Shown here: one piece after another, positions 18,723 through 44,042 of the stretch
Position numbering within the stretch: position 1 is the first letter of the stretch
Layout of the letters: every line of letters starts with the position of its first letter
Source of the DNA: Candidatus Thiodiazotropha sp. (ex Codakia rugifera)
GTDB lineage: Bacteria > Pseudomonadota > Gammaproteobacteria > Chromatiales > Chromatiaceae
Assembly: GCA_025656675.1 (NCBI GenBank)
Contig: JAHXHN010000012.1
Span: forward strand, 1-64,000
DNA length: 64,000 bases
Direction: 5' to 3'
Notes under the pieces: generated by a model
The model's database searches: none
What the model was told of the DNA's origin: nothing
What the model saw: only the letters and a program-made list of their open reading frames with translations
Program-made: the position numbers and the translations under genes

Positions 18723-19544
18723 TTAGCTCAGTACCGTGGCAGCACGGTTGATGTGCTGTAATAGCCGAGCTGATATCTCCTCAATAGACATTGATGTGGT
18801 GTCCAGATAGGGGATTTTATAGTGCTTATACAGATCTTCAGCCAATTTGATCTCCATCTTACACTGTTCAAGGGAAGAGTAGCGACGATCAGGACGACGT
18901 TCCTGTCGGATGCGTTGCAGTTGCAGAGGATCGATAGTCAGGCCATACAGCTTTTCCCGATAAGTATTTAATGTTTTTGGGAGCAGGTCGTTATACAAGT
19001 CATCTTCCGTCAGCGGGTAATTAGCGGCTAGAACGCTATGTTGAAGGCCAAGAAACAGACAAGTAGGTGTTTTACCTACCCGTGATACACCGACCAGGAT
19101 CAGGTCGGCAGTGGTGTAGTTTTTTGTCACTGCCCCATCATCATTGTTCAGCGCAAAATTGACTGCATGGATGCGTCGATCATAGGCTCTGTTATTGTCA
19201 GTTGTGTGATAACGGCCTAATGCGTGGGAGGAGGGTAGGCTCAATTCCTCTTCAAGTCGGTTGGTAAATGACTCGAAGAAATCCATCACCGGGACATCCA
19301 GTTTCTTGAAATAGTCACGTATTCTGGGATCGACAAGGGTGGTGAATACGATCGGTTTTTCATCGGATTCGATGGTGGTCTGATTAATACGTTCTGCGAC
19401 ACGCCTGGCTTTTTCCAGGGTGTCGATAAATGGCCAATGAACTGTTTCATATTTGAAACCGTCGAATTGGCTCAATAGCGAGCGTCCCATCGCCTCGACA
19501 GTAATGCCGGTGTGGTCTGCAAGAAAGAAAATGGTCCGTTTCAT
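18723..19544 (-). CDS. ppsR: PEP synthase regulatory kinase/phosphorylase (DUF299)
   Basis: A bifunctional regulator that phosphorylates PEP synthase on a catalytic-domain threonine with ADP and removes it by phosphorolysis. The 273 residues match the family; the P-loop GVSRVGKTPTCLFLG is intact, as are the N-terminal FFLADHTGITVEAMGRSLL and C-terminal PYLDTTSMSIEEISA. ATG 19544 is taken because the family begins KRTIFFLADHTG; a frame back to 19592 lacks support. It lies 124 bases after ppsA on the same strand, with a strong hairpin between. In E. coli the two genes are divergent; here they are tandem. Confidence 0.95.
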   Translation of the reverse strand: MKRTIFFLADHTGITVEAMGRSLLSQFDGFKYETVHWPFIDTLEKARRVAERINQTTIESDEKPIVFTTLVDPRIRDYFKKLDVPVMDFFESFTNRLEEELSLPSSHALGRYHTTDNNRAYDRRIHAVNFALNNDDGAVTKNYTTADLILVGVSRVGKTPTCLFLGLQHSVLAANYPLTEDDLYNDLLPKTLNTYREKLYGLTIDPLQLQRIRQERRPDRRYSSLEQCKMEIKLAEDLYKHYKIPYLDTTSMSIEEISARLLQHINRAATVLS

Positions 19545-19633
19545 CAGATAGACTGCATGGTATTCATATACGTAGGAATGGCGCTTGGGCAAATATTGGT
19601 GCGACAGGACCGCACCTGACTAATGATGAATGC

Positions 19634-19660
19634 ATAGGGTGCGGCTCTGCCGCACCCTAT
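19634..19660 (-). terminator. 12-bp perfect hairpin between ppsA and ppsR
   Basis: ATAGGGTGCGGC (19634-19645) and GCCGCACCCTAT (19649-19660) form a perfect, GC-rich 12-bp stem with a TCT loop just after the ppsA stop. No T-run follows on either strand, so it may be a partial terminator, processing site or 3'-end protector setting the ppsA:ppsR ratio rather than a full stop. Confidence 0.55.
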
Positions 19661-19668
19661 CTGAATGT

Positions 19669-22077
19669 TCAGCCTTTTAAATTAGCCAAAAGTCGCCAGG
19701 TATCAACCACCGTATCCGGATTCAGCGAAATGCTGGCGATACGCTGTTCAACCAGCCACTCAGCCAGATCGGGATAGTCCGAGGGCCCCTGGCCACAGAT
19801 ACCGACATACTTGCCAGCATCGTTACAGGCCTGTATGGCCATGCTGAGCATTTTCTTCACTGCCGGGTTGCGTTCATCAAAACTTTTGGCAACCAGACCT
19901 GAATCTCGATCCAGTCCCAGAGTCAATTGGGTCATGTCGTTTGAGCCAATGGAAAAGCCATCGAAGTACTCCAGAAACTCCTTGGCCAGCACCGCATTGG
20001 ATGGCAATTCACACATCATGATGACCTTTAGCCCATTTACGCCACGTTTCAGCCCATTCTCTTCAAGCAGTTGGATAACCCCTGCGGCTTCTTCCAGGGT
20101 GCGCACGAAGGGAATCATGATCTCCACATTACTGAACCCCATCTCCTCACGGACCCGTTTCAATGCTTGGCATTCCAGTTCAAAGCAGGGTCTGAAGCTC
20201 TCTGAAATATAGCGTGAGGCGCCGCGAAATCCGATCATCGGGTTTTCTTCTTCAGGTTCGTAGAGCTTGCCACCGATCAAATTGGCGTATTCGTTCGATT
20301 TGAAATCGGACATACGAACAATCACAGATTTGCCATTAAAGGCTGCAGCCAGCGTGGATATACCCTCTACCAGCTTATCCACATAGAAACTGACCGGATC
20401 CTCGTAGCCATTGATCTGCTCCTGTACAGTGGATTTGATTTCAGCGGGTAGTTTGTCAAATTCCATCAGTGCACGGGGATGTACACCAATGGTGGTATTG
20501 ATGATGAACTCCAGACGTGCCAAACCGATACCGGCATTAGGGATGCGACTGAAAGCAAATGCGCGGCTGGGATTGGCTACATTCATCATTATCTTGGCTG
20601 GCGGTTCAGGTAAACTGGTGACATCGCCATGGGTGATTGAAAACTTCAGTAAACCTTCATAGATATAGCCATCGTCACCTTCGGCACAGGATACGGTTAC
20701 CTCCTGACCCTCAATCAGAGATTCGGTGGCATCATGACAGCCAACCACGGCAGGGATACCCAACTCACGGGCAATGATTGCCGCATGGCAGGTACGTCCG
20801 CCACGATTGGTCACAATCGCTGAGGCGCGTTTCATGACAGGCTCCCAATCCGGGTCGGTCATGTCGGTGATCAGCACATCTCCTGCTGCTACCTTGGCCA
20901 TTTCACTGGCATTGTGGATGATTTTCGCAACACCGCTACCGATGCGTTGACCTATCGCTCTGCCCTGAGCCAACACGTTACCATTCTCTTCCAGTTTAAA
21001 GCGTTCCACCGATGTGGCATCAACACGACTCTCCACGGTTTCAGGTCGAGCCTGCAGGATATAGAGCTGACCATCACTACCGTCCAGTCCCCATTCGATA
21101 TCCATTGGACGCTGATAGTGTTTCTCAATGGTGATCGCCATCTGCGCCAGGCTCTCTATCTGTTCACCGCTCAGGGAGAATTGTCGACGCTCCTGCTCTG
21201 GTACATCGACAGTCACGACACGCTCTTCGCCTGCCTGACCGTATACCATCTTGATCGCCTTGCTACCCAGATTACGGCGTAAGATTGCGGGTCGTCCCGC
21301 TTCTACATTTCCCTTATGCACATAGAATTCATCTGGATTGACTGAACCTTGTACAACGGTCTCGCCCAGACCATAGGAGCTGGTGATGAAAACAGCATCC
21401 TTAAAACCCGATTCCGTATCCAGGGTGAACATAACCCCAGCGGAACCGATATCAGAACGCACCATGCGTTGAATGCCTGCGGACAGGGCAACCTCTTCAT
21501 GTGCGAATCCCTGATGAACCCGATAGGAAATGGCGCGATCGTTATAGAGGGAAGCAAATACCTCCTTGATCGCGATCATGACATCATCCAGGCCCTGCAC
21601 ATTGAGGAAGGTTTCCTGCTGACCTGCGAAAGAGGCGTCAGGCAAGTCTTCCGCTGTTGCTGATGAGCGAACAGCTACCGAGGGAGGTTGGGCGGCATTG
21701 CCGGTGAGTTTTTTATAGGCTGCTGTGACTGCATTTTCCAGCGCTTCAGGGAAAGGGGCCTCAATAACCCACTCGCGTACTCTCTTACCTGCTTCAGCCA
21801 AGGCCGTCACATCCTCTACATCCAACTGTTTTAACAGTGGATCAATCCGTTCTGCGAGATGGTTATGGCGTAAGAACTCACGAAAGGCATGTGCGGTAGT
21901 TGCAAAACCACCAGGGACACTGACACCCGCATCGGCAAGGCCACTGATCATCTCTCCCAAGGACGCATTCTTACCGCCAACCTGGTCAACATCATGCATC
22001 TTAAGATTTTCGAACCAGATTATTTGCTCATTCACCGCTTGTCCTCGGCTCTTGGATTGATTAGATGGCTCATTCAT
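19669..22077 (-). CDS. ppsA: Phosphoenolpyruvate synthase
   Basis: Pyruvate, water dikinase: pyruvate + ATP + H2O to PEP + AMP + Pi, a gluconeogenic entry step. The 802 residues are normal. An N-terminal ATP-grasp region ([32 protein letters not shown]), the phosphohistidine domain with [19 protein letters not shown] (catalytic His), and a PEP-binding barrel ending [11 protein letters not shown] (catalytic Cys) are all seen. AGAGG lies 9 bases before the ATG. Only 5 bases separate it from the Cys-rich ORF that follows rnfA, so it appears to be part of the rnf/nifJ operon, an unusual position. Likely controlled post-translationally by PpsR. Confidence 0.97.
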
Positions 22078-22082
22078 TGTTT

Positions 22083-22280
22083 TTAACCTCTGAGGTGGTC
22101 TCCTTGACGTTGGCAGCTGCTACCACTGCACAGACAGCTTTTTCCACAGCCCGCACCCTCTTCCCTGGGGGGGCCTAGTTCTGGATGCAGTTTAGCGAAT
22201 CGCCGTGCGATTGACTGCACAATCAGCCAACCGAGCAGCAAGATGGGAATTAGAGTCATGGCAATAAGATAATCGATCAT
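22083..22280 (-). CDS. Small Cys-rich single-pass membrane protein in the rnf operon
   Basis: A 65-residue protein: one N-terminal membrane helix ([17 protein letters not shown]), a basic segment, then a cysteine cluster [14 protein letters not shown]. It resembles small FeoB- or NqrM-associated Cys-rich membrane proteins in layout only, and may help iron-sulfur or flavin assembly of Rnf (inference). It starts 14 bases after rnfA and ends 5 bases before ppsA. A run of seven C (coding strand, near 22170) lies just before the Cys-rich part. The other frame after this run stays open to a TGA overlapping the ppsA start, so slippage or a sequencing error would change the tail. Confidence 0.68.
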
Positions 22281-22294
22281 CGTGTCAATCCCAG

Positions 22295-22876
22295 CTAGCC
22301 TCCAAGGCCGGCGAAACCCATGAAAGAGAGAGAGAGGAGTCCGCCAAGCATCAGACTGACTGCAGCACCCTGGGTAATGCTGGGCATGGTTGAGAGTTCC
22401 AGCTTTTCCCTCAGACCGGCCATTAACAGAATTGCCAGAATAAAGCCTGTTCCCGCACCCAGGGCATAAACCAGGGATTGCAGGAAGTCGTACTCCTTGA
22501 AAGTCTGAAACAGTGCCAGACCGAGGATTGCACAGTTGGTTGTGATCAGAGGCAGAAAGATACCCAGAGAACGGAACAGACCGGGGGAGAACTTTTTCAG
22601 TGTCATCTCCACCAGCTGTACAGCACTGGCAATAACTGCGATATAGGCAATCAAACGCAGGAATTCGATATTAAATGAGACCAAAACGGTATTGATCAGG
22701 TAGGCGCAGATTGAACTCACCAACATCACGAACATTGTCGCCAATCCCATCGGAAGGGCGGTATTGAGTTTGCCGGAAACACCCAGAAATGGGCAAAGAC
22801 CGAGAAAGAGTGCTAAAACGAAATTGTTTGCCAGCACCGCATTGAGAAAGATGAAGCTGAGTGTTTCTGTTGCCAT
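22295..22876 (-). CDS. rnfA: Rnf complex subunit A
   Basis: A six-helix membrane subunit of the ion-translocating ferredoxin:NAD+ oxidoreductase, 193 residues. NFVLALFLGLCPFLG and ITTNCAILGLALF each carry a conserved cysteine of the pair that RnfA and RnfE use to hold an intramembrane iron-sulfur centre. It follows rnfE after a 151-base gap with short direct repeats, the largest gap inside the operon. Confidence 0.96.
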   Translation of the reverse strand: MATETLSFIFLNAVLANNFVLALFLGLCPFLGVSGKLNTALPMGLATMFVMLVSSICAYLINTVLVSFNIEFLRLIAYIAVIASAVQLVEMTLKKFSPGLFRSLGIFLPLITTNCAILGLALFQTFKEYDFLQSLVYALGAGTGFILAILLMAGLREKLELSTMPSITQGAAVSLMLGGLLSLSFMGFAGLGG

Positions 22877-22991
22877 GGGTGATGTTACTTTGTTCCAGGT
22901 TTTGTATTTTGTAATTTGAATATTGAATGAGTGAGTTCACTTTGCTCATCTCTTTTTTTATTCATAGGCAGTGTGTGCGCTTCACACACAT

Positions 22992-23025
22992 TCAATTCAA
23001 AATTCAAAAATATCAATTCAAAATT
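22992..23025. repeat. 13-bp direct repeat in the rnfE-rnfA gap
   Basis: TCAATTCAAAATT occurs at 22992-23004 and again at 23013-23025, a 21-bp period (two helical turns). On the coding strand these copies precede a TGTGTG/CACACA hairpin (near 22970-22990). The 151-base gap is much AT-richer than its surroundings. It could be a regulator site for an internal promoter before rnfA-orf-ppsA. Confidence 0.4.
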
Positions 23026-23027
23026 TA

Positions 23028-23675
23028 TCATCTTGTTTCCGCCACAGGCTCAAGTTCTGCTCGCTCTTTGCGTTGCTTCAGCCATTCAAACAGCAACAGC
23101 CATGCCCCGAGGACAAGAAAACCACCCGCTGGAAGCACCATGACTACCCAGGGTTCGAAACGGGGTCCGAAAAGATCAAAACCAAACAGGCTGCCGGCAC
23201 CGAGGATTTCACGTACCACACCCAGACAGAGCAGGGCGAAGGTAAAACCAATGCCCATTCCAAGGGCGTTGACCACCGCTTTCATGGGCCGGTTTCTTGA
23301 GGCGTAGGCTTCGGCGCGACCCAGAATCATACAATTCACCACAATCAGCTGAATAAAAGCACCCAATGCGTTATAGAGATCGAGGGAGATGGCTTGGATG
23401 GTGTAGTCGACGATGGTAACGAAGGTGGCAATGATCACGATGTAAGTGGCGATTCGCACCTGCTTGGGAATGCTGTGACGGAGCAGGGAGATCAGTGTGC
23501 CGGAGGCAAGTAGTACAAATGTGGTGGCAAGCCCCATGGCCAGAGCATTGATTGCCGAGTTGGTCACTGCCAGTACCGGGCACATGCCTAACAACATGAC
23601 AAACACCGGATTGTCATGCCACAGACCTTCACTGAAGGTGTCCCAGGTGATGACGTTGTTCTCTTTTTTAGCCAT
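23028..23675 (-). CDS. rnfE: Rnf complex subunit E
   Basis: A six-helix membrane subunit homologous to RnfA/NqrD, 215 residues from ATG 23675. NPVFVMLLGMCPVLAVTNSA and LIVVNCMILGRAEAYASRN carry the paired conserved cysteines; PMKAVVNALGMGIGF and REILGAGSLFGFDL are RnfE-typical. A longer frame to 23717 adds a residue stretch without family support. The C-terminal tail is charged and cytoplasmic. Confidence 0.95.
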   Translation of the reverse strand: MAKKENNVITWDTFSEGLWHDNPVFVMLLGMCPVLAVTNSAINALAMGLATTFVLLASGTLISLLRHSIPKQVRIATYIVIIATFVTIVDYTIQAISLDLYNALGAFIQLIVVNCMILGRAEAYASRNRPMKAVVNALGMGIGFTFALLCLGVVREILGAGSLFGFDLFGPRFEPWVVMVLPAGGFLVLGAWLLLFEWLKQRKERAELEPVAETR

Positions 23676-23764
23676 GGTCAATTCATTTAGATTGTGGTTT
23701 GTGGGTTTTTTGGGCACTACAAACCCGCGTGAATATTGAAATCAAGCACAGGCTGAATACATGC

Positions 23765-24484
23765 TTATTCATGGGTTACCTCCGCTTCATGCATAATAAA
23801 ACGCTCTTCCATCATTTTTTTCAGATGAGGGGCGATGCCAGGTAATAGCTGTTGAGCCGACTGGTTTAACGCTTTTCCCACTGCCTTTGAGGAAATTGTG
23901 GCGCCAGAGATGGCATCGATTTCCCAGGGATGCTGTTTGGTGCCATGTTTAACGGTGACAATTTCATTAGCCAGTGTTTTGCCATCATCGGCTAGTCGGG
24001 TCTCCAGTGCATCGAAGTTGGCTACAAAATTGGGATCTGTGATGATCTTGTCACCCAACCCAGGGGTTTCTGCCAATTTCAACACCTTGATTCCACGGAT
24101 GCATTGACAGACTGGATCATAACCGTAGAGTAGATAGATCATGTCTGCATAACCCTGTGCAGCGGCTTTGGCAGCAATACCCTTCAGTCGACCTTCACTA
24201 TCGTAGCCCGCGTAGATCAGAAGACCCTTAGCTGGGTTTTCCGCAGTGACAGCAACAACGCCGGACTCATTGATCACAAAGTCCTTTCGCGCAACAGCGC
24301 CGGGGATGACCTGGAAGACAGCCGCTTCAATAGCCCTGCGTTGATTTTCCTCGATCATCGGCTTTGTCAGTTGGTAGGTGAGTACCACCAGAAAGCCCGA
24401 TAACATGGCAATACCCATCAATGTACGGATCATGGGACCGGCAGGTGTCGCCGGTTTTATGACTTCAGCTTCGGGGGTGCTCAT
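23765..24484 (-). CDS. rnfG: Rnf complex subunit G (FMN-binding)
   Basis: A single-pass subunit with a periplasmic flavin domain, 239 residues. One N-terminal membrane helix (about 18-40) precedes the FMN-binding domain. ETPGLGDKI and the covalent FMN-threonine motif SGATISS (about residues 192-198) are intact. ATG 24484 overlaps the rnfD stop (ATGA), so the two are coupled. The insert with QCIRGIKVLKLAET is also family-like. Confidence 0.95.
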   Translation of the reverse strand: MSTPEAEVIKPATPAGPMIRTLMGIAMLSGFLVVLTYQLTKPMIEENQRRAIEAAVFQVIPGAVARKDFVINESGVVAVTAENPAKGLLIYAGYDSEGRLKGIAAKAAAQGYADMIYLLYGYDPVCQCIRGIKVLKLAETPGLGDKIITDPNFVANFDALETRLADDGKTLANEIVTVKHGTKQHPWEIDAISGATISSKAVGKALNQSAQQLLPGIAPHLKKMMEERFIMHEAEVTHE

Positions 24485-25527
24485 TTACTTGCCCTCTGCT
24501 GACCGAAGACACGGGGCTGGGTGATCTGGTCGATCAGTGGCGTGGCTGCATTGCCCAGAAGAATGGCATACATCACACCCTCGGTAAGGCCGCCGAAAAG
24601 ACGGATGATAACGGTAATGATACCAATCATCAGGCCATAGATGATGATTCCCAGCGGGGTAACAGGGGAACCTATCATATCGCTAGCCATGAACCAGGCC
24701 CCAAGCATCAGACCACCGGAGCAAAGCACAAACAGTGGATCGGGGTAACGCACTGGATCGATGAGAAAAAAGACGCCCGCAGTCAATGCCGCACCCAGCA
24801 TCACCATGACAGGAATACGCCAGTCGAGCATATTGCGTGCGGCCAGGTAGAGTCCACAGACCAGAATCAACAGTGCGGATGTTTCACCGGCAGATCCTGC
24901 TGTTGTGCCTAGCAACATATCCATGATGTCCGTTTGTACACCCTCAAATTTTTGCAGTGCCAAGGGTGTTGCCCCACTGAAGGCATCAATGTTGACTGTT
25001 TCAACCCACTCTCCGATGGTGGGTGACTGGAGAAAAGGGGGGGTCAGGGTTGTGGGAATAAATTGGCTGAACCGGTCCTCGAAAAAAGCGGGTGTCCAGG
25101 TGGTAATGGCTACAGGAAAGGCTGCCTGCACAAAGGCTCGGCCGATCAGTGCAGGATTCATTGCATTCATGCCGAGACCACCAAACAGGGCTTTGCCCAG
25201 GGCGATGGCTATAAATCCGGCTACTGCACCCATCCAAAGGGGAAAACCCGGTGGAAGGGTCAGCGCCAGTAATAAACCTGTTATGGTGGCTGACCAGTCA
25301 CTCAAGCTGCTGGCTGAATCATTCAGGCGATTGAATAGACGCTCACTCAACAGACAGGTAACCGTTACCACGATGAGTAGAGCGAGAGCACTCAATCCAA
25401 ATTCCCAGATGGTAAATGCACATATTGGAAGTAGGGCATAGATCACATTGCGCATGATCCTCACAACATCGTCACCCGCATGTGCATGGGGTGACGTACG
25501 TAGTTCAATTGTGGGTTTCTTGCTCAT
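24481..25527 (-). CDS. rnfD: Rnf complex subunit D (FMN-binding membrane subunit)
   Basis: A multi-helix membrane subunit of 348 residues from ATG 25527. The start SPHAHAGDDVVRIM is RnfD-typical; the FMN-threonine motif SGATPLA is present in the periplasmic loop near the middle. ATGA overlaps link it to both rnfC (upstream) and rnfG (downstream). A longer frame to 25617 only reads through the end of rnfC. Confidence 0.95.
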   Translation of the reverse strand: MSKKPTIELRTSPHAHAGDDVVRIMRNVIYALLPICAFTIWEFGLSALALLIVVTVTCLLSERLFNRLNDSASSLSDWSATITGLLLALTLPPGFPLWMGAVAGFIAIALGKALFGGLGMNAMNPALIGRAFVQAAFPVAITTWTPAFFEDRFSQFIPTTLTPPFLQSPTIGEWVETVNIDAFSGATPLALQKFEGVQTDIMDMLLGTTAGSAGETSALLILVCGLYLAARNMLDWRIPVMVMLGAALTAGVFFLIDPVRYPDPLFVLCSGGLMLGAWFMASDMIGSPVTPLGIIIYGLMIGIITVIIRLFGGLTEGVMYAILLGNAATPLIDQITQPRVFGQQRASK

Positions 25528-26864
25528 ACTGCCTGTTCTCTGTTGATCGCCTTGGCAATCCGAAAATATTGTACAAGTGGTATGTTGGAAGGACATACAT
25601 AAGAACAACAACCACATTCGAAGCAGTCGTTGAGGTGGTACTCCTGGGCCATCTCTTCATATTTACGTTTGGCGGCCATTTGCCCTAGGATAGAGGGGTT
25701 GAGGTGCATTGGACAGGCATAGACGCAACGTGCACATCGAATACAAGGCCAGATTCTATGGCTCTCCTCCTCAATTGAGGGCTCGTTGAGCACCAGCAGA
25801 CCGGAAGTCCCCTTAGTGATGGGTGTGTCCATGGCAGAGACTGCCGGTCCCATCATCGGCCCACCTAAAATAAATTCAGTACGGGATCCTTCATAGCCTG
25901 CCTGCTGCAAAATATGGCTTATCGGTGTTCCCAGAGGGACCATGTAGTTGCCGGGTTTGACAACCCCCGGGCCAGCAACAGTAATGACACGCTCAATCAA
26001 TCCCTGGCCTTCGGGAAGCAGTTGCCCAAGGCTTGCCAGGGTGCCCACATTATTGACAACCACACCAACATCGGCCGGTAGCCCGCCAGCCGGTACTTCA
26101 CGGTCGAGTAGCGATTTAATCAACATCTTCTCGGAGCCTTGCGGATACTTGGTTTCTACCGCCTCGACCCGTACTGGACTGCCCTTTGAGAGGTGACTCC
26201 GCAACACTTCGACGGCATCCATCTTATTGTCTTCAATGCCGATGATGGCCTGGCTGGTGCCAGATGCCCGCATCGCATAACGTATACCCCTCAACAACTG
26301 TTTCGGATACTCGAGCATGATACGGTGATCGCAAGTCAGATAGGGCTCGCACTCACAGCCATTGATAATCAGGGTATCGACCTGCTTACCCTCGGGTATC
26401 ATCATCTTTATATGGGAAGGAAAGGCGGCCCCGCCCAGCCCCACCATGCCGCTATCCTGAATCGCATGAATGATCTCCTGCTGGGTGAGGTCGCTCATCT
26501 CCTGGGGTTGTCCCCACAGGACCTCCTGAGTGGATCCCTCATACACATCCAACACGATAGCGTTGGATTTTGGGCCCTTGGGAGTCGGCATTAACTCGAT
26601 CACCCTTACCCGGCCGGTTGCAGGGGCGTGTATGGGTACAGAGAAATTGCCATCCGCCTTGGCAATAAGCTCCCCACGTACCACTTCCTGTCCTTTACGG
26701 ACCATAGGGATGGCTGGTTTACCTATATGTTGATCCAGCGGTAATACCAATTCCACTGGAAAAGGGAGACGGCGTATCGGTTTGTCCGCCGTATCCTTAT
26801 GGTAGGGCGGATGGATGCCGTGGGTGAAGCTTTTCAGCCCAAACAGCAGGTTGAGAAGTCCCAT
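25524..26864 (-). CDS. rnfC: Rnf complex subunit C (iron-sulfur, NADH/FMN site)
   Basis: A peripheral subunit of 446 residues that carries the NADH-reactive site. An N-terminal sandwich-hybrid region (GIHPPYHKD) is followed by the NuoF-like nucleotide/FMN domain (GLGGAAFPSHIKM, INGCECEPYLTCDHR) and two C-terminal 4Fe-4S motifs CIRCARCVYACP and CFECGCCSYVCP. It lacks the long C-terminal repeat extension of enterobacterial RsxC. It lies 92 bases after nifJ with a strong hairpin between, and overlaps rnfD. Confidence 0.96.
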   Translation of the reverse strand: MGLLNLLFGLKSFTHGIHPPYHKDTADKPIRRLPFPVELVLPLDQHIGKPAIPMVRKGQEVVRGELIAKADGNFSVPIHAPATGRVRVIELMPTPKGPKSNAIVLDVYEGSTQEVLWGQPQEMSDLTQQEIIHAIQDSGMVGLGGAAFPSHIKMMIPEGKQVDTLIINGCECEPYLTCDHRIMLEYPKQLLRGIRYAMRASGTSQAIIGIEDNKMDAVEVLRSHLSKGSPVRVEAVETKYPQGSEKMLIKSLLDREVPAGGLPADVGVVVNNVGTLASLGQLLPEGQGLIERVITVAGPGVVKPGNYMVPLGTPISHILQQAGYEGSRTEFILGGPMMGPAVSAMDTPITKGTSGLLVLNEPSIEEESHRIWPCIRCARCVYACPMHLNPSILGQMAAKRKYEEMAQEYHLNDCFECGCCSYVCPSNIPLVQYFRIAKAINREQAV

Positions 26865-26881
26865 ATCATTCAGACTCGGTT

Positions 26882-26909
26882 AACGGGTGGATCTGACGAT
26901 CCACCCGTT
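26882..26909 (-). promoter_or_regulatory. 12-bp intercistronic hairpin between nifJ and rnfC
   Basis: AACGGGTGGATC (26882-26893) pairs perfectly with GATCCACCCGTT (26898-26909) around a TGAC loop. No T-run follows on the minus strand, so this is better read as an mRNA processing or stability element protecting the nifJ 3' end than as a terminator. It sits 17 bases before the rnfC start. Confidence 0.5.
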
Positions 26910-26956
26910 TGATGAAAAGCGTGTTCTGTCAGCAATCATTGCTTTTGCCAACATGC

Positions 26957-29900
26957 TTATTGGTATTTGGCCGCACGCTTGACCCACTTATCCAAATCCT
27001 TCTCCGATGGATTCCAGGGTGTACCGGGATGTATACAGCCGGCAGTGCATTTCTCCGCCGACTTGACGATGTCCTTAAAGTGGCCCGCTTTGGCATCGAC
27101 GATAATCGCCTTCTTATCATCGTTATAGCTGAAGATCTTTGGATTAATATCGATGCACTCATCACAAGCGGTACACTCCGGGGTCTCGATCCATACCGGT
27201 TCATAATCACCCGCTTCACCACCGCCACCTGCATCTGAAGCCATAGCGCCGGCACCGGCGCCATTTGCCGAGATTGAACCTGCCAATGCCCCGGCATTAC
27301 CACTGGCTGCCATCGAAAGCAGTGTAGAACTGAGGCGATTGGCCATATCGACCTTGGCCTGGTCTACCAAGGCATTCACATCCACTTTATTGAGTTCGCC
27401 GGCAATACCCTTGAGTTGACGCCAGAATTGACGGCGCTCATCACAAGAGAGGGCGATCTCTTTGGCACAGATGATGCGCGTCAAGCGATTCTTGGCATCG
27501 ACACCCCAGATGTACGGGAATTTACCGTCACGATCATCTTCGTCAAAGTCCAGGAATTCGTGCATCGGTACCATGTTGTCATTCCAGGTCTCCGGCGGTG
27601 CTGTACGGAACTGCTTACGGAAACGGCCCTCGGTAACAGCAAAGTCTGCAAAGGTCATGGGGACTTCCAGTTTGCACTCCTTGCCTTTCTCATCCTGATA
27701 GCTGATGTTGTACATTGGCCAATCATCATCCATCGCCGGATTGCCTTCCAGGTCGATACATTCCTCTATGCTTTCACCGGCATCCGGATCATATTTCATC
27801 AGCGGATAACCGCGTGACTCCACGGCCAGTTTGGATTGCTGAGAGGCTATATCATCACCGATTCCATGCTCTGGCGGGCAGACTGCATAGATGTTGAACA
27901 GTGCCGGACGACGACTGTTCAATCCATCGATATAACCCTCCAACAGATGGGTGATGTTACTGATGGTACTCTGCAGGACATAGGTCGTACGGTGGGCGAT
28001 ACCGATCAACGAGACCTCCTTGCGGATCTCTTCCTTGCCCTTCCAGGCTTTGCCGTAGGGGCTCATGTCTGCCACCTGGCCGATATAGCCTGAAGTACAA
28101 GCTTGTCCACCGGTATTGGAATAGACCTGGGTATCGAGTACCAGTACCTTGATGGGCATGCCCGAGGCAAGCGCCCTGGAAAGGTTCTGGAAACCGATAT
28201 CGTACATTGCGCCGTCACCGCCTATGGAGACAACTGGCGGACACAGCAGCCATTCATCATCGGTAAACTGTTTCCAACTGAACTGCTTGAAGAAGTCTTC
28301 ATGCTCGGCCAGGTTGTATTTGCCGGCCAGTTCCAGCTCAGCTTTGCGGATGGCGGAAAAGCCATCCGCCATCTTGCACATATGTCCTTCGAAGAGACCC
28401 ATGGCAACCGATGGGCTGTCCTGGAACAGGTGGCTGGCCCAGGGGAAAGGGTAGGGGTTATAGGGATAGGTGGAACCCCAAACGGAGGTACAACCCGTTG
28501 CGTTGACAATGCCCATCTCAGCACGTCCGTTCTTGCTGGTGCCTTCGGCATAGCGCCATTTGAGGTCACGCAGCTCATCCAGCAACTGGGTCACCCACTG
28601 CAACCATTCACGATCAATCACGGTTTTCTCATGACCGCTGTCGAGATTGTCGCTCAGGTTGGAGAGAGTCAGGTCACTTTCGCTGTCATTCGAGGCAGCC
28701 TCGGCAATCGCAGTTGCGTTACTCAGATCGACGCCGGCAGCCAGTTTCAGCCGTACATGCTGCTCCAGCTGTTCGATCAACTTGTCGATCTTTTCCAGCT
28801 GCTGTTTGACCCGTGGCTGCATCAGTGCGGTTACGGTACCGGTAAAGAGATGAATAATGGTCTTCTCACCACATCCCAGGCAGGCTCCATCACCGCAGGA
28901 CATGGAGTTGTAGTTGGCCTTGTCCATCAACAGTGTCTGCAGGGCGCCAATCTTCTCATCCAGGTCATCGATGCGGTTGAATGACGGGTCGCTGGTAGGC
29001 AGTTCCAGCCAGAAGTCCCAATCGTTGCGCAGTCGCTGAATGGCTGCTTCATCCTGATGGGTGGCGACCAATGCATCGTCTTCACAGATTTCGACACACT
29101 CCATACACCCTTTACAGGTATAGGGATTGACGGTGATGGAGAAGAGTCCACCGCTGTTTTTGTTCTTCTTCTCCATGTTGTTCCAATACGGTTTGGTAAC
29201 CGAAAATTCGAATTCACCCAAGGACTGTAGGAACAGGCCGAACTCTTCTTCAAGCGCAGGACGGGCATCATCCTCAATCTCGGCAGCAGCTATGCATTCC
29301 AGTACAGCCTGATCAAGCATGGTGCGTACATCTGCGGCTTCACCGGATTCGTTCAATAATTCACGCAGCCGCTTCTCCACATTGCGGCTTTCGCGTCGCA
29401 GATACTGGGTAGGACGACCACCTGTTTCAATGTGGTTGATGGCAGTGGCAAACACATCGGTGACGGTGTTGACCAGACCCGGTATGGCACTGTCAGGGCA
29501 GACAGTGTAACAGTCACCACAGGCAGTACAGTTTTCCGCCACCCATTTCGGATAGTCGAAACGAATCTGGGTCATATCACGATAGACGCCGGTGGCGGCG
29601 GGTATCAATGACAGGGCTTGATAGGGGTCCGCCAGGTTGTCATTACCTTTGCCGGAGGCATAGAAGCTGCCTGTTTGTTCCCAGAAACGGTGCACATCGG
29701 AGATGCCACCCTCTGTCTGAGGGAGCTGCTTGAGCATGACAGGCATACCCAGCTCTTTTTTGACCGGCATTTGAGCGGATGAGCCAATCGTCTTATTGGT
29801 GATTTCATGAATCTCATCGAATCCGCGACGTACCACTCGCAGATTATCTTCCACCACACGACGGCCTTTGCTACCGAATTTGCTGACCAGTTGGTCCTCG

Positions 29901-31897
29901 ATTGCGGAGAATAGTTTCTTCTCATCCAGACCTGACATCTCCATCAGCGGTGAGCCGGCAAAGAAGGCACCCTGGAAGGCATTACCCTGCATACGCAGTT
30001 GCAGCTCTGCATCGGAAGCCTCTTCACGAGCAATCTTAAAGCCATCCACATAGAAGACATGGATCTCATTTTCTATGACCTGCTGCTGCATCCAGCGGGG
30101 GAAGGAGTCCCACACATCATCAGTGCTGGCAAGGTTGGATTGGATGATCAGTGTGCCCCCCTTCTTCAAGCCGGATAAAGGGTTGGAGTGACCAAATACA
30201 TTCGGGTCAGGACTCAACACCACATCGACATAGTGGTACTCACAGTTGAGCGGTATCGGTGTAGGCGCTGCGGAGAGATAATAGGTGGTTGGCTGACCCT
30301 TTTTCTCAGAACCGTATTTCGGATTTGCCTTGATCTCATAACCGAGCAGATCATAGAGGGTCATAACCAGGTTTTTGCCGGTGGTAATGGCACCCCATCC
30401 ACCCACTGAATGCATACGAACCGTAATCGAACCCTCGGGCATCAGATTTGGGTTCTCAGAGCCGCGTACAGCTATGTCACCGATATCGGGATAGGCCTCA
30501 AGCAGCTTCTGGATATGGATCTCTTGTTTGGGTGTGCTTGCTTCCCTGACAAAATCGATACCCAGGTAGAAAAACTTGCGATGTTCACCTTCAGGTAACA
30601 TGTTTTCAATGGCACCAATCAATGCTTCAGGCTGAAGATCCCGTGAGCCCAGGCCGTAGGCACCTGAGTAGAGATGTGGCGCATCGGCAAAGCTGCCATA
30701 GCTGTTGTATTTGGGGTAAGGCTGTGTCTGCTTAGTCGCAGCGGCCTGGCCGTTTTCAATACACTTGGAAACGACGGAACGTACTTCACGCATCAGGGGC
30801 AGGTCTTCTGCCAGCGGCTGGTCGGTGCGCTCCAGCACACAAACACCCTTTTTCCCTTTCAGGATGGTGCCCAAGAGATCACCGGGGAAGGGACGAAACA
30901 TGGTGATATCGATGATACCGACCTTCAGCTTACGGGTTTTCTGCAGATAATCGGCAACGCCATGGGCCTGTACGATCATCGATCCCATACCAACGATGAC
31001 ATAGTCGGCTTTGTCTGTGTTGTAACAACCGATACGCTCGTAGCGACGCCCAGTGAGTTCGTAGTACTCATCCATCACCTGGTCAGCGATGTCAGGGATA
31101 TGCTGAAAGAAGTAAGGACGCTGAGACGCAGTGGTCTGCATATAGGCATCCTGATTTTGTACAGAACCGGAGAGCATGGGGTTGTCGACGTCCCAGATTG
31201 CGGGAACACGGCGGCGAGTCTCACCAAATAGCATCTTTTGGGCCGGTGTCGGGCATTCAATTTCATCATCCGGACGACCCAGATATTCAGTGATCAACTC
31301 ACGCTCCGGTACCTGCAGCGGTTCAATCAGGTGGGTGGTGAGGAAGCCGTCCTGGGCAACGGCAGCAGGGGTCAGAGAGAGCTCGGCAATTTTTCGGCCA
31401 ATCAGATTGAGGTCAGCTGCACCCTGGGCATTATTGGCAAATACCTGGAAAAAACCGGTATCGTCGATACAGTGATAGTCGTCATGACCACAGTGTACAT
31501 TCAATGAGGCCTTGGTAATTGCGCGACACCCAATGTTCAGTACGTAAGGCAAACGTTTACCGACTGCGGCATACAGGGATTCGTGCATGAAAGCCACGCC
31601 CTGTGCCGAGGAGAAATTGGTTGAACGCAGACCGGTCATGGACATGCCCGCGGTGACCGCCGCTGCCGCATGTTCCGATTCAGGTTCAATGAAGATCAGT
31701 GATCGGTCCGAGATGTTGATATGGCCCTTGGCCGTCTCTTCTGCCCAGTATTCACCCATCTGGGTTGAGGGCGTGATGGGGTAAGCACCAGCCGCATCGG
31801 AGGCCTCCCGCTCACACATAATCACCGCGCCGTTGCCATCCATTGCCATGCGGATACCGGGGTATTTGAAGGTCTTCTCGTCTTTTTTACCAAACAT
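26957..31897 (-). CDS. nifJ: Pyruvate:ferredoxin (flavodoxin) oxidoreductase, extended form with C-terminal ferredoxin
   Basis: Reversible pyruvate + CoA + oxidised ferredoxin to acetyl-CoA + CO2 + reduced ferredoxin. All PFOR modules are present: the pyruvate/TPP domain (YPITPSTQMGEYWAEE near residue 40), the gamma domain, a two-cluster ferredoxin domain (CTACGDCYTVCP near 785, CKGCMECVEIC near 925), the proximal-cluster segment CGDGACLGCGEK (near 1005) and the TPP motif GGDGAMYD (near 1225). At 1646 residues it is some 450 longer than usual NifJ (about 1170-1200). There are helical inserts of roughly 90-100 residues between the two ferredoxin motifs and before the TPP domain. After a Gly/Ala-rich linker comes an extra ferredoxin domain (CTACDEC near 1575, CTAGC near 1620). 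It sits inside the rnf operon. Confidence 0.95.
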   Translation of the reverse strand: MFGKKDEKTFKYPGIRMAMDGNGAVIMCEREASDAAGAYPITPSTQMGEYWAEETAKGHINISDRSLIFIEPESEHAAAAVTAGMSMTGLRSTNFSSAQGVAFMHESLYAAVGKRLPYVLNIGCRAITKASLNVHCGHDDYHCIDDTGFFQVFANNAQGAADLNLIGRKIAELSLTPAAVAQDGFLTTHLIEPLQVPERELITEYLGRPDDEIECPTPAQKMLFGETRRRVPAIWDVDNPMLSGSVQNQDAYMQTTASQRPYFFQHIPDIADQVMDEYYELTGRRYERIGCYNTDKADYVIVGMGSMIVQAHGVADYLQKTRKLKVGIIDITMFRPFPGDLLGTILKGKKGVCVLERTDQPLAEDLPLMREVRSVVSKCIENGQAAATKQTQPYPKYNSYGSFADAPHLYSGAYGLGSRDLQPEALIGAIENMLPEGEHRKFFYLGIDFVREASTPKQEIHIQKLLEAYPDIGDIAVRGSENPNLMPEGSITVRMHSVGGWGAITTGKNLVMTLYDLLGYEIKANPKYGSEKKGQPTTYYLSAAPTPIPLNCEYHYVDVVLSPDPNVFGHSNPLSGLKKGGTLIIQSNLASTDDVWDSFPRWMQQQVIENEIHVFYVDGFKIAREEASDAELQLRMQGNAFQGAFFAGSPLMEMSGLDEKKLFSAIEDQLVSKFGSKGRRVVEDNLRVVRRGFDEIHEITNKTIGSSAQMPVKKELGMPVMLKQLPQTEGGISDVHRFWEQTGSFYASGKGNDNLADPYQALSLIPAATGVYRDMTQIRFDYPKWVAENCTACGDCYTVCPDSAIPGLVNTVTDVFATAINHIETGGRPTQYLRRESRNVEKRLRELLNESGEAADVRTMLDQAVLECIAAAEIEDDARPALEEEFGLFLQSLGEFEFSVTKPYWNNMEKKNKNSGGLFSITVNPYTCKGCMECVEICEDDALVATHQDEAAIQRLRNDWDFWLELPTSDPSFNRIDDLDEKIGALQTLLMDKANYNSMSCGDGACLGCGEKTIIHLFTGTVTALMQPRVKQQLEKIDKLIEQLEQHVRLKLAAGVDLSNATAIAEAASNDSESDLTLSNLSDNLDSGHEKTVIDREWLQWVTQLLDELRDLKWRYAEGTSKNGRAEMGIVNATGCTSVWGSTYPYNPYPFPWASHLFQDSPSVAMGLFEGHMCKMADGFSAIRKAELELAGKYNLAEHEDFFKQFSWKQFTDDEWLLCPPVVSIGGDGAMYDIGFQNLSRALASGMPIKVLVLDTQVYSNTGGQACTSGYIGQVADMSPYGKAWKGKEEIRKEVSLIGIAHRTTYVLQSTISNITHLLEGYIDGLNSRRPALFNIYAVCPPEHGIGDDIASQQSKLAVESRGYPLMKYDPDAGESIEECIDLEGNPAMDDDWPMYNISYQDEKGKECKLEVPMTFADFAVTEGRFRKQFRTAPPETWNDNMVPMHEFLDFDEDDRDGKFPYIWGVDAKNRLTRIICAKEIALSCDERRQFWRQLKGIAGELNKVDVNALVDQAKVDMANRLSSTLLSMAASGNAGALAGSISANGAGAGAMASDAGGGGEAGDYEPVWIETPECTACDECIDINPKIFSYNDDKKAIIVDAKAGHFKDIVKSAEKCTAGCIHPGTPWNPSEKDLDKWVKRAAKYQ

Positions 31898-31995
31898 TGA
31901 ACACTTCTCTTGTCTAGTTACTGGTTATGACTTCTAGTTTATTAAATTGCATTGAACGAACTAAAGTCTCAAAACCGAACACTGAGGCTACCTGC

Positions 31996-32874
31996 TTATA
32001 GAGGTAACGCTTCATTGCGTACGATGCGCTTAGCTTTAACACCTTTTATCGGGCCCCTGTCATCATCCAACCATACGATGGCCCCAGTCGGGCAACGCTC
32101 CGTTGCAATCGGTGAGGCGAAACCGTTATTGCTGTAATCAACCACAGCCAGGTTGTCTTGAATGGTGATCAGTCCCTCGGGTGAATCCTTCACACATCGC
32201 TCACAGGCTGTACAGGCTACTTCACAGTTGTTTTCTGCTGTATCTTCATCTTCCAGGTTCTTGCATGCCACCCACAGACGGCGATCCACGGGGTGGATGG
32301 AGAATAACCCCTTTGGACAGATATCCACACAATCCTCACATGCCGTGCATTTCGCAGCGTCTACGATCGGCAGGCCATGGTGGTCCATGGTGATGGCATC
32401 AAAGTCGCATACTTCAGCACAGTCAGCCAATCCGATGCAGCCCCAGGTGCAACTCTTAGGCCCACCTGAAACAACAGCTGCTGCTCGACAGCTTTCAAGA
32501 CCTTTGTAATGAGCGCGCATGCGGGCGACATGAGTACCACCCGCACAAGCAAGCCGAGCGACGCGTTTAACCACATCTCCCGCATCAACACCCAGGTAAT
32601 CGGCAATTTCATCAATTGCTTCACTGCTACTGACCGTGCACTGAGCGGGGGTGACCTCGCCGGAAATCAGGGCTTCGGCAAAAGGTCGACAACCGGCATT
32701 GCCACAGGCACCGCAGTTAGTGGCAGGTAGCATGCCCTCAAGATCATCGATACGTGGATCCTCGAATACCCAGAGTTTCTTGTTGGCAAACGCAAGCATG
32801 GAGGAGAGCAACAGCCCAAGCACCCCCATAAAGAGGATAGCGGTTGTAACATTCAGTGCTATGTCAATATCCAT
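31996..32874 (-). CDS. rnfB: Rnf complex subunit B (multi-cluster ferredoxin subunit)
   Basis: The electron-entry subunit of Rnf, 292 residues, long form. An N-terminal membrane helix (ILFMGVLGLLLSSML) precedes the 4Fe-4S domain NCGACGNAGC...C, then a ferredoxin pair (CTWGCIGLADCAEVC and CTACEDCVDICP) and a C-terminal ferredoxin region. In this last region the first motif reads CTACERCVKDSP (fourth Cys replaced by Ser) and the second keeps only ERCP: one of the two clusters has been lost as a unit. ATG 32874 is used; TTG 32886 is possible. First gene of the rnf-nifJ-pps run. Confidence 0.94.
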   Translation of the reverse strand: MDIDIALNVTTAILFMGVLGLLLSSMLAFANKKLWVFEDPRIDDLEGMLPATNCGACGNAGCRPFAEALISGEVTPAQCTVSSSEAIDEIADYLGVDAGDVVKRVARLACAGGTHVARMRAHYKGLESCRAAAVVSGGPKSCTWGCIGLADCAEVCDFDAITMDHHGLPIVDAAKCTACEDCVDICPKGLFSIHPVDRRLWVACKNLEDEDTAENNCEVACTACERCVKDSPEGLITIQDNLAVVDYSNNGFASPIATERCPTGAIVWLDDDRGPIKGVKAKRIVRNEALPL

Positions 32875-33479: not shown

Positions 33480-34061
33480 TTGAATATTTTCTCCTTCAAA
33501 TATCGTGAGAGTAGCAATTTTGAACAACTGTTGGAGCCCTATTTCGATCAGTTATACCGACTGGCATTCCGTTTCACCACAAATCAGGATGAGGCGGAAG
33601 ATCTATTACAAGAGCTATTGACAAAACTCTATCCAAAACAGGATCAGCTACAACAGATTGAGGATCTTAAGCCCTGGTTGGCTCGTTCACTTTATAACTT
33701 GTTCATTGACAGATACCGAAGCAGCACTCGCTCCGCTATTGATCTGATCGATCGTGACTCGTCAGAAAAACTCGATAATTTACGCGATCATGCTGAAAAT
33801 CCAGAGGAACTCAATGCGCGTTGGCAGATACAGGATCTACTTAGTAAGGCCATGTTTAAATTGAGTGAACCACATCGGATTTTGTTGATCCTGCACGACA
33901 TAGAAGGTTACAGCCTGCCCGAACTGACGGACGTGCTCAACCTGCCACTCGGCACACTTAAATCACGTCTGCACCGGGCTAGAGATGGATTACGTATCAT
34001 CCTTACCAGGGAACCTTTCAGTAGCATTGGACGTGTTTCTAGTGAGAGGCAGCAAAAATGA
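33480..34061 (+). CDS. ECF RNA polymerase sigma factor
   Basis: A 193-residue group 4 sigma-70 factor. Region 2 (about 18-85) has FDQLYRLAFRFTTNQDEAEDLLQE; region 4 (about 120-175) has the helix-turn-helix ending LPLGTLKSRLHRARDGL. The start is TTG 33480, with GAGGAAGC directly upstream as ribosome binding site. It overlaps the anti-sigma gene by ATGA, so the pair is made in a fixed ratio. The downstream genes are an exported coiled-coil protein and an outer-membrane-type protein, which points to an envelope regulon. Confidence 0.94.
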   Translation: MNIFSFKYRESSNFEQLLEPYFDQLYRLAFRFTTNQDEAEDLLQELLTKLYPKQDQLQQIEDLKPWLARSLYNLFIDRYRSSTRSAIDLIDRDSSEKLDNLRDHAENPEELNARWQIQDLLSKAMFKLSEPHRILLILHDIEGYSLPELTDVLNLPLGTLKSRLHRARDGLRIILTREPFSSIGRVSSERQQK

Positions 34062-42114: not shown

Positions 42115-42181
42115 CGGAATGAGGCGTGTCTCGGGTTTATGGCCAATAAGTCTGAGTCATTTACTAAGGTTTAGCTGATTT

Positions 42182-42281
42182 TTTTGCACTGCACTATTTT
42201 TTTTATCAAACCTAACTATTGATATTTTTTAGAAAATAATCTTGACCTTTTCACTATGCTTTAACGCAGTGCACAAAAATA
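42182..42281. promoter_or_regulatory. Paired inverted sites in the aceK/aceB intergenic region
   Basis: TTTTGCACTGC (about 42182-42193) and GCAGTGCACAAAA (42267-42279) are inverted copies about 75 bases apart, flanking the AT-rich core where the divergent promoters should lie. The arrangement suits a dimeric regulator that loops or bridges both promoters. The regulator is not identifiable from the sequence. Confidence 0.4.
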
Positions 42282-42325
42282 ACAGCGTGCCTCGATGGAG
42301 GACACGAGAAACCAGATCCCAATAT

Positions 42326-42348
42326 CCATGCACCCATTTGGTGCATGG
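42326..42348 (+). promoter_or_regulatory. 9-bp hairpin in the aceB leader
   Basis: CCATGCACC (42326-42334) and GGTGCATGG (42340-42348) form a perfect stem with a 5-base loop, ending about 12 bases before the aceB ribosome binding site (GAGGAGAG). No T-run follows. It may influence translation or mRNA stability. Confidence 0.45.
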
Positions 42349-42377
42349 CAATCGTGAAGATGAGGAGAGAGAAGATT

Positions 42378-43991: not shown

Positions 43992-44042
43992 GTTGTGCGG
44001 CGAGTAACAAACGACACGAAGTAATACCACTGGAGAGCATAA

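What the first reader, a model, noticed from the sequence alone, without database searches (positions are those of the whole stretch)
18723..32874. A single-strand run joins Rnf, PFOR, PEP synthase and its regulatory kinase
The order is rnfB-nifJ-rnfC-rnfD-rnfG-rnfE-rnfA-Cys-rich ORF-ppsA-ppsR. nifJ splits the rnf genes, ppsA starts 5 bases after the small ORF that follows rnfA by 14 bases, and ppsR is next. Known functions: Rnf couples ferredoxin/NAD to an ion gradient; PFOR interconverts pyruvate and acetyl-CoA + CO2; PpsA makes PEP; PpsR switches PpsA. Inference: a dedicated C2-to-C3 module in which Rnf uses the ion gradient and NADH to make reduced ferredoxin for pyruvate synthesis, and PpsA pulls pyruvate to PEP. 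In the other direction it would save energy under anoxia.
Basis: partly seen in the sequence, partly recalled or inferred. Interest (0 to 1): 0.85.

Follow-up and report, generated by a model that had tools for sequence, protein, structure and literature searches.

The report
Pyruvate enzyme wired into Rnf pump
In sulfur-oxidizing and purple bacteria, a large pyruvate enzyme with its own built-in electron carrier is encoded inside the genes of an ion pump, a conserved arrangement suggesting that the pump powers, or is powered by, pyruvate chemistry directly.

Summary
In detail: one minus-strand run, rnfB-PFOR-rnfC-D-G-E-A-small Cys-rich ORF-ppsA-ppsR, in a Candidatus Thiodiazotropha-like genome. 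It is not private. Among the 80 best genome loci, rnfB lies within 2 kb upstream of the PFOR in 73 of 73 with room and rnfC within 3 kb downstream in 64 of 64; the full order holds in 56 of 56. ppsA follows in only 14 of 50. The PFOR is not ordinary NifJ: it is a divergent 1646-aa form with a ferredoxin domain on a flexible Ala/Gly linker. The Cys-rich ORF is a conserved single-TM family after rnfA (56 of 56), unmatched in Pfam. A second cluster in the same genome joins a KorAB-type oxidoreductase to another Rnf, with a PFOR copy that has lost active-site motifs but keeps its Fe-S motifs and is under purifying selection. I infer that this PFOR fold is a physical electron adaptor for Rnf. PFOR between rnfB and rnfC was already noted in one symbiont in 2014 (PMC4287430). 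Direction is unproven; pyruvate synthesis is favoured here.

The parts
31996..32874 (-). rnfB, long (anaerobe-type) form, about 292 aa
   Evidence: PF04060 and Fer4 domains; TIGR01944 87.8 bits over cut-off 68.7; best solved relatives are 9eri_B and 7zc6_B, both RnfB
26957..31897 (-). 1646-aa PFOR (pyruvate:ferredoxin oxidoreductase, long form) between rnfB and rnfC
   Evidence: POR_N, PFOR_II, POR, TPP_enzyme_C, Fer4; active-site motifs kept
26960..27211 (-). C-terminal ferredoxin domain of the PFOR (residues 1563-1646)
   Evidence: PF13370; matches ferredoxin I 1dax, E=3e-5; pLDDT about 60-84 by block; Cys motif in 119 of 121 proteins, the window's included
27212..27304 (-). flexible Ala/Gly/Ser/Asn-rich linker (residues 1532-1562)
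   Evidence: pLDDT under 50; picked out in 74 of 121 proteins by my pattern, median 43 aa including flanks
29156..29434 (-). helical insertion (about residues 822-914) relative to the genome's own NifJ, between the two 4Fe-4S motifs
28520..28840 (-). helical insertion (about residues 1020-1126)
25524..26864 (-). rnfC
   Evidence: TIGR01945 508 bits over 246
24481..25527 (-). rnfD (probable start at internal ATG 25527, overlapping rnfC by 4 nt; ORF runs from 25617); SGAT flavin motif
   Evidence: TIGR01946 286 over 207; motif; start inferred from the translation
23765..24484 (-). rnfG, SGAT flavin motif
   Evidence: TIGR01947 100.2 bits, cut-off 102; PF04205; motif
23028..23717 (-). rnfE (start codon uncertain)
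   Evidence: TIGR01948 234.8 over 213.4
22295..22876 (-). rnfA
   Evidence: TIGR01943 234.8 over 229.3
22083..22280 (-). 65-aa single-TM Cys-rich protein (called cysM in my scripts), conserved after rnfA
   Evidence: 56 of 56 loci; 89 of 101 in the order-level set; no Pfam or NCBIfam family; TM helix read by eye
19669..22077 (-). ppsA, PEP synthase
   Evidence: NF005057 1252.8 over 598
19598..19660 (-). two inverted repeats between ppsA and ppsR
   Evidence: read; region folds at z = -4.0, though the minimum-energy fold pairs the arms in another way
18723..19544 (-). ppsR, PEP synthase regulatory kinase/phosphorylase
   Evidence: PF03618; NF003742 276 over 225, NF049928 348.9 with cut-off 350

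Best explanation
The run encodes a dedicated, electrically coupled PFOR-Rnf unit. The long PFOR interconverts pyruvate + CoA with acetyl-CoA + CO2. Its two ferredoxin-type [4Fe-4S] clusters pass electrons to its own C-terminal ferredoxin, which swings on a flexible tether to RnfB, and Rnf exchanges them with NAD(H) against an ion gradient. Free ferredoxin is thus not needed. The Cys-rich membrane protein is most likely an Rnf accessory, perhaps for iron delivery to the intramembrane RnfA/RnfE cluster. In this lineage ppsA and ppsR were added, so the unit most likely runs mainly towards pyruvate and PEP. Shown: gene order and its conservation, domain content, kept active-site motifs, tethered ferredoxin domain by sequence and model. 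Inferred: physical contact, electron path, direction, ion, accessory role.
For: Ferredoxin motif in 119 of 121 proteins (the 120 best of 6611 hits plus the window's); domain matches ferredoxin I; linker disordered in the model. Active-site motifs kept. In cluster 2 of the same genome (C1:392953-408498) and in 10 relatives, a PFOR-derived protein beside rnfB has lost YPITP, GGDGA and YSNTGGQ in 11 of 11 but keeps both 4Fe-4S motifs in 11 of 11; its partner p840, a degenerate copy of PFOR 760-1642, keeps the tethered ferredoxin in 8 of 8 full copies; dN/dS is 0.137 and 0.083 in one pair. An enzyme body kept as a non-enzyme in the same operon slot argues that the PFOR fold itself serves Rnf. For direction: ppsA/ppsR in the run; isocitrate lyase and malate synthase about 9-12 kb away; purple sulfur bacteria among the hosts.
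Against: No biochemical or structural evidence of contact. The comparison with solved structures finds only the PFOR core and TM-scores are modest (0.3-0.4). ppsA is absent next to the cluster in 36 of 50 loci with room, including the Chromatiaceae. An FNR-like gene (at least 17 loci) and a LysR gene (at least 20) neighbour the cluster in others. Shewanella atlantica, not known to me as an autotroph, has the unit too. The published reading of the same gene order favours pyruvate oxidation (PMC4287430). The dead PFOR evolves faster (dN/dS 0.137) than its neighbours (0.04-0.08). Bias: loci were chosen by PFOR similarity, and some gaps are over 600 nt (e.g. L072).
Confidence: 0.6

Rival explanations
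1. The unit runs in the oxidative direction. Under anoxia pyruvate (from glycogen) is oxidised to acetyl-CoA, and Rnf turns the electrons into NADH plus an ion gradient; ppsA is just regulated alongside.
For: Proposed for the Solemya velum symbiont from the same gene order; ferredoxin oxidation by Rnf generates the gradient in many anaerobes (PMC12174285); hosts include a Shewanella.
Against: ppsA makes PEP from pyruvate and would compete with pyruvate oxidation; ppsA linkage needs at least 3 changes on the tree, so it was gained or kept more than once; the glyoxylate shunt nearby points to C2 assimilation. The enzyme set is reversible, so both may occur.
Confidence: 0.3
2. PFOR and Rnf are co-regulated but communicate only through the common soluble ferredoxin pool; there is no physical unit, and the fused ferredoxin is only an extra relay.
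For: Ordinary PFORs use soluble ferredoxin (established knowledge); no contact has been shown.
Against: The slot between rnfB and rnfC is kept even by a PFOR copy without active-site motifs but with intact Fe-S motifs, under purifying selection; ferredoxin is built in.
Confidence: 0.3
3. The unit mainly supplies reduced ferredoxin to nitrogenase, as the names nifJ and rnf suggest.
For: Rnf feeds nitrogenase in Rhodobacter and Azotobacter (PMC12174285, passages); Thiodiazotropha has nitrogenase (PMC6593406 table).
Against: No nitrogenase family hit among the window ORFs I scanned (not all ORFs were scanned); the genome has a separate canonical rnfABCDGE set; neighbours are ppsA/ppsR.
Confidence: 0.05
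4. The adjacency is an accident of operon history without functional meaning.
For: Operons can be inherited passively among relatives; the long PFORs sampled form one clade.
Against: Order kept at 64-89% PFOR identity in bins and isolates named as Gamma- and Betaproteobacteria and re-used with different partners in cluster 2.
Confidence: 0.03

Closest known systems
rnf2 operon with PFOR of the Solemya velum symbiont (PMC4287430; passages read)
   Same: Reports rnfBCDGEA with pyruvate:ferredoxin oxidoreductase genes between rnfB2 and rnfC2; the organism's locus is in my set as L066
   Different: One genome; direction read as pyruvate donating electrons; the passages I read do not mention the tethered ferredoxin, the Cys-rich protein, ppsA linkage or a dead PFOR cluster. 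In L066 the tblastn hits to PFOR and rnfB were short or in pieces
NQR-QFR supercomplex (SNFR) of Prevotella bryantii (PMC8516057; abstract and passages)
   Same: An Rnf-type ion pump physically joined to a metabolic redox enzyme
   Different: NQR and fumarate reductase joined by menaquinone; shown by native gels; here only genomic inference, with PFOR and a tethered ferredoxin
Canonical PFOR/NifJ (1b0p, 6cin)
   Same: Same catalytic domains and active-site motifs
   Different: About 450 residues longer than the genome's own NifJ; below the NifJ equivalog cut-off; helical insertions; fused ferredoxin
NqrM, maturation protein of Na+-NQR (PMC12174285, passages)
   Same: Small, one N-terminal TM helix, Cys-rich tail, gene beside the pump genes
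   Different: No PF04400 hit; profile comparison (with 6 rows, one of them a wrong-frame ORF) aligns only the TM part
Endoriftia rTCA cluster with Rnf, and korAB(3) with 'PFOR-like' (PMC11636981; passages)
   Same: Same kinds of genes; korAB and 'PFOR-like' fall together under sulfide limitation, as cluster 2 genes might
   Different: I could not check that these names are the cluster 2 genes; directions are marked unknown there

Membership tests
Rnf complex (RnfABCDGE) | Subunits A, B, C, D, E over the family cut-offs | tested here: met
   TIGR01943, 01944, 01945, 01946, 01948 all over cut-off
Rnf complex (RnfABCDGE) | Subunit G over the family cut-off | tested here: inconclusive
   TIGR01947 100.2 bits against 102; PF04205 57.9 over 22
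Rnf complex (RnfABCDGE) | Flavin-attachment motifs in RnfD and RnfG, Cys in RnfA/RnfE | tested here: met
   SGAT at RnfD 214 and RnfG 193; RnfA Cys 28 and 115, RnfE Cys 46 and 129; the roles of these residues are recalled
Rnf complex (RnfABCDGE) | Ion-coupled ferredoxin:NAD electron transfer | not testable with these tools
   needs membranes
PFOR / pyruvate synthase | Catalytic motifs (YPITP, Glu, Arg, GGDGA, YSNTGGQ, proximal-cluster Cys) | tested here: met
   alignment; motif roles recalled
PFOR / pyruvate synthase | Acts on pyruvate | not testable with these tools
   substrate inferred from kinship and ppsA neighbourhood only
NifJ equivalog (TIGR02176) | Score over the curated cut-off | tested here: not met
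   404.1 bits, cut-off 911.35
PEP synthase PpsA | Score over the equivalog cut-off | tested here: met
   NF005057 1252.8 over 598
PpsR | Score over the cut-off | tested here: inconclusive
   NF003742 276 over 225, but NF049928 348.9 with cut-off 350
NqrM (PF04400) | Match to the family model and Cys tail | tested here: not met
   no hit in own genome; PF04400 not among the families matched by 20 members at E<=10; hhalign aligns TM only
FeoB-associated Cys-rich protein (PF12669) | Match to the family model | tested here: not met
   1 of 20 members, best E=0.064
KorAB 2-oxoglutarate:ferredoxin oxidoreductase (cluster 2) | Alpha and beta subunit models, substrate | tested here: inconclusive
   TIGR03710 494 over 483; TIGR02177 230 with cut-off 262; sucCD beside the dead PFOR in 4 of 10 relatives points to 2-oxoglutarate/succinyl-CoA
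Rnf-enzyme supercomplex | Physical association | not testable with these tools
   needs native gels or cryo-EM

The most novel reading that the evidence does not exclude
Rnf of the rnfBCDGEA type in these bacteria is a plug-in ion-driven 2-oxoacid machine: a PFOR-fold subunit with a tethered ferredoxin docks on RnfB. In one version the subunit is the active pyruvate enzyme; in the other it has decayed into a pair of non-catalytic electron adaptors (dead PFOR + p840) that wire an independent KorAB to its own Rnf. The pump thereby drives reductive carboxylation (or harvests decarboxylation) without free ferredoxin, and a new small membrane protein family matures or assembles it.
Probability: 0.4. 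Interest if true: 0.88.

Novelty: new variant of a known kind. Interest (0 to 1): 0.7.

Why it matters
If true, an ion pump is hard-wired to a carbon-fixing or carbon-releasing enzyme, so that the membrane gradient sets the direction of the acetyl-CoA/pyruvate and succinyl-CoA/2-oxoglutarate steps. This would explain how microaerophilic sulfur oxidizers and purple bacteria can run ferredoxin-dependent carboxylations, might give a role to the extra Rnf sets of Allochromatium vinosum, called 'entirely unclear' in its genome paper (PMC3368242, passages), and offers a case of an iron-sulfur enzyme kept as a non-catalytic wire. The Cys-rich family is a testable candidate for an Rnf counterpart of NqrM.

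Tried and rejected
Rejected: ordinary NifJ (score far under the cut-off). Rejected: chance adjacency. Rejected: NqrM or FeoB-associated identity of the Cys-rich ORF. Rejected: that the dead PFOR is a decaying pseudogene (open over 1509-1564 aa in the 11 copies read; dN/dS 0.137 in one pair). Against this, 21 of the 38 genome rows show 1-3 stops inside the matched stretch; the query there begins upstream of the real start, and copies that I read from such rows (e.g. L107, L109, L113) are open, but I did not read all. Rejected: that ppsA belongs to the core.

Led nowhere: the promoter and terminator scan found fewer promoter-like sites (9) than shuffles (17.2) and 11 terminator-like against 12.4. 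No Rfam hit at gathering scores, no tRNA. In the held library no paper other than the genome paper names the six A. vinosum locus tags searched. Ten paper searches showed no title or abstract start describing the tethered ferredoxin, the Cys-rich protein after rnfA or the dead PFOR. The library lacks most subscription papers, and some listings were partial (25 of 40, 15 of 28, 15 of 92).

Dropped from counts: L023 has ppsA but missed my room threshold of 3,500 bases. Loci on short contigs were set aside as lacking room. One dN/dS value (bOFOR against L106) was mis-registered and is not used. In one search twelve of 101 PFOR rows, which I picked by eye as near-full (about 1,500 residues or more), had no Cys-rich hit on the same contig; seven of those genomes have a strong one on another contig. 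The tree of PFOR classes is midpoint-rooted with a very long NifJ branch, so the root is unsure.
Full report
What is there. The window holds, on the minus strand, rnfB, a 1646-aa PFOR, rnfC, rnfD, rnfG, rnfE, rnfA, a 65-aa Cys-rich ORF, ppsA and ppsR. The genome has 4.65 Mb in 19 contigs. It is most likely a Candidatus Thiodiazotropha or close relative: a genome of its genus (G532) has the PFOR at the same contig coordinates as the named locus L018, an inference. The gene order is rnfBCDGEA, which PMC4014512 (passages) gives for the Chlorobi/Bacteroidetes lineage, against rnfABCDGE for most proteobacteria. The genome has three Rnf-type sets: canonical rnfABCDGE at C1:10-15 kb, cluster 2 at C1:393-397 kb, and the window's.

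Is the arrangement conserved? With at least 1,000 bases upstream, rnfB lies within 2 kb upstream on the same strand in 73 of 73; with at least 1,500 downstream, rnfC lies within 3 kb downstream in 64 of 64; with room for all, the order rnfB-PFOR-rnfC-D-G-E-A holds in 56 of 56. Record titles include Thiodiazotropha, Sedimenticola, Allochromatium, Thiocapsa, Marichromatium, Imhoffiella, Ectothiorhodospira, Venteria, Shewanella atlantica, Rhodoferax antarcticus, Sulfuritalea and other Rhodocyclales, and one SAR324 bin (names of bins may be wrong). It is rare at large: 3 of 397 sampled genomes of the phylum, the own one included, at E <= 1e-200.

The ppsA arm. ppsA (over 50% identity) follows in 14 of the 50 loci with 3,500 bases of room after rnfA: Thiodiazotropha, tubeworm symbionts, one Sedimenticola bin, one other gammaproteobacterium bin, Venteria, a Thiotrichaceae bin and two further bins. 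On the PFOR tree (FastTree, 50 rows including the window) this label needs at least 3 changes, against 13.1 for shuffled labels. So it is an add-on gained more than once, or lost repeatedly. In other lineages an FNR-like gene follows (at least 17 loci), a LysR gene is divergent upstream (at least 20), or ApbE is near (5); each group was named from one member. In this genome ppsA is the only clear PEP synthase: the other PF01326 place is a 976-979-aa protein with 24% partial identity.

The PFOR is a distinct form. It keeps the catalytic motifs and the Cys of the proximal and the two ferredoxin-type clusters (motif roles recalled from D. africanus PFOR). Relative to the genome's own 1192-aa NifJ it has, among others, insertions at about 822-914 and 1020-1126 and a tail from 1510. 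A model of residues 780-1646 (52 sequences, mean pLDDT 77, pTM 0.79) shows helices for the insertions, a disordered linker at 1532-1562 (pLDDT 25-45 by block) and a C-terminal domain at about 60-84. Foldseek finds PFOR structures for the whole, at TM-scores of 0.3-0.4. The last 77 residues match ferredoxin I (1dax, E = 3e-5; Desulfovibrio africanus, recalled). The motif C-x2-C-x2-C...C-x3-C-x-HP is in 119 of 121 proteins, and the other two lack only the last Cys (these are the 120 best of 6611 hits plus the window's). The linker found in 74 of 121 by a simple pattern is 27% Ala, 21% Gly, 10% Ser, 8% Asn.

The Cys-rich protein. In 56 of 56 loci with room a small ORF with an N-terminal hydrophobic stretch, a P-x-x-G motif (mostly HPE-x-GP) and 3-5 Cys in the tail follows rnfA. 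An HMM of 20 of them finds 121 of 210 genomes of the order. Of 101 genomes with a near-full PFOR hit, 89 have it 4.3-5.8 kb downstream on the same strand. It has no Pfam or NCBIfam family. Its topology resembles NqrM, but profile comparison aligns only the TM part. A role in maturing or assembling Rnf is inference from position and Cys content.

Cluster 2, outside the window (own genome C1:392953-408498, minus strand). It encodes OFOR gamma-alpha (637 aa), beta (348 aa), an 840-aa protein (p840), rnfB2, a PFOR-like protein of about 1539 aa, rnfC2-D-G-E-A and a 65-aa Cys-rich protein; the last was seen by tblastn in 6 of 10 relatives. The OFOR pair keeps YPITP and GDGD motifs (sequences printed). 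The PFOR-like protein does not: in 11 of 11 copies (own and 10 relatives) YPITP, GGDGA and YSNTGGQ are gone, while both CxxCxxCxxxC motifs are kept. p840 is a degenerate copy of PFOR 760-1642 (hhalign probability 100%) that keeps only the tethered ferredoxin, in 8 of 8 full copies. The dead copies form one clade (100/100). dN/dS against the nearest relative fetched is 0.137 (dead PFOR) and 0.083 (p840), against 0.04-0.07 for the four other genes measured in that pair: constrained, but less than the neighbours. The dead PFOR is in 38 of 210 genomes of the order, 12 of which had no hit of long-PFOR strength, so it does not merely accompany the active one. In the phylum sample it was seen in the own genome only. 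In L107, L109 and L113 sucC and sucD sit between it and rnfC2, and in L110 they follow it; this points to 2-oxoglutarate/succinyl-CoA. In 10 of 11 copies the order rnfB2-dead PFOR-(sucCD or other ORFs)-rnfC2 is kept; in L110 rnfC2 is not in the fetched stretch, and L108 shows no rnfD-A after rnfC2.

Reasoning. A dead PFOR that keeps its place beside rnfB and its relay motifs, with a partner that keeps the tethered ferredoxin, under selection, next to an oxidoreductase that looks active, is most simply an electron adaptor for Rnf. If so, the live PFOR of the window probably docks the same way. This is inference; nothing here shows contact. Related precedents are the NQR-QFR supercomplex (PMC8516057) and the Rnf-ATP synthase preparation (PMC7414866, passages).

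Direction. For synthesis: ppsA/ppsR, the nearby isocitrate lyase and malate synthase A and AceK, and hosts that include purple sulfur bacteria; PMC6593406 lists PFOR, PEP synthase, glyoxylate shunt, PHA and CBB for Thiodiazotropha (table). For oxidation: the 2014 proposal and glycogen storage in the same table. Both directions may be used. In Endoriftia, korAB(3) and 'PFOR-like' fall together under sulfide limitation (PMC11636981, passages); this would fit cluster 2, but I could not check the gene identities.

Novelty. PFOR between rnfB2 and rnfC2 was reported in 2014 for one symbiont (PMC4287430). The breadth of conservation, the built-in ferredoxin, the Cys-rich family, the ppsA add-on and the dead-PFOR adaptor cluster did not show up in my ten searches of the held library (listings and the passages named). 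I rate it a new variant of a known kind.

Noticed in passing
own genome C1:392953-408498 (L099, L100): Second Rnf cluster with KorAB-type enzyme and a PFOR-derived pair without active-site motifs, kept under purifying selection
   Followed up: yes
L114-L118, L120 (1666-1707-aa ORFs): Third class of long PFOR with intact motifs and no Rnf cluster in the fetched stretch; in L114 it is followed by a 975-aa FAD/NAD(P)H protein with Fer4_20 and DHODB Fe-S domains, possibly making an NAD(P)-linked oxidoreductase
   Followed up: partly
window 40363-45365: AceK divergent from malate synthase A and isocitrate lyase, about 7-12 kb from the PFOR-Rnf-pps run
   Followed up: partly
window 19598-19660: Two GC-rich inverted repeats between ppsA and ppsR, no T-run; could separate ppsR expression
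   Followed up: partly
window 33480-34732: ECF-type sigma factor and zinc-finger (anti-sigma-like) pair divergent from rnfB
   Followed up: no
L033 and 19 other loci, upstream of rnfB: LysR-type regulator, mostly divergent from rnfB; candidate regulator of the unit
   Followed up: no
L043 and 16 other loci, downstream of the Cys-rich gene: FNR-like protein (PetH models match, under their cut-offs), suggesting a link to NADPH in those lineages
   Followed up: no
own genome C1:594000-606000 (L102): Another 2-oxoacid oxidoreductase with a Pyr_redox_2/Fer4_20 partner gene
   Followed up: no
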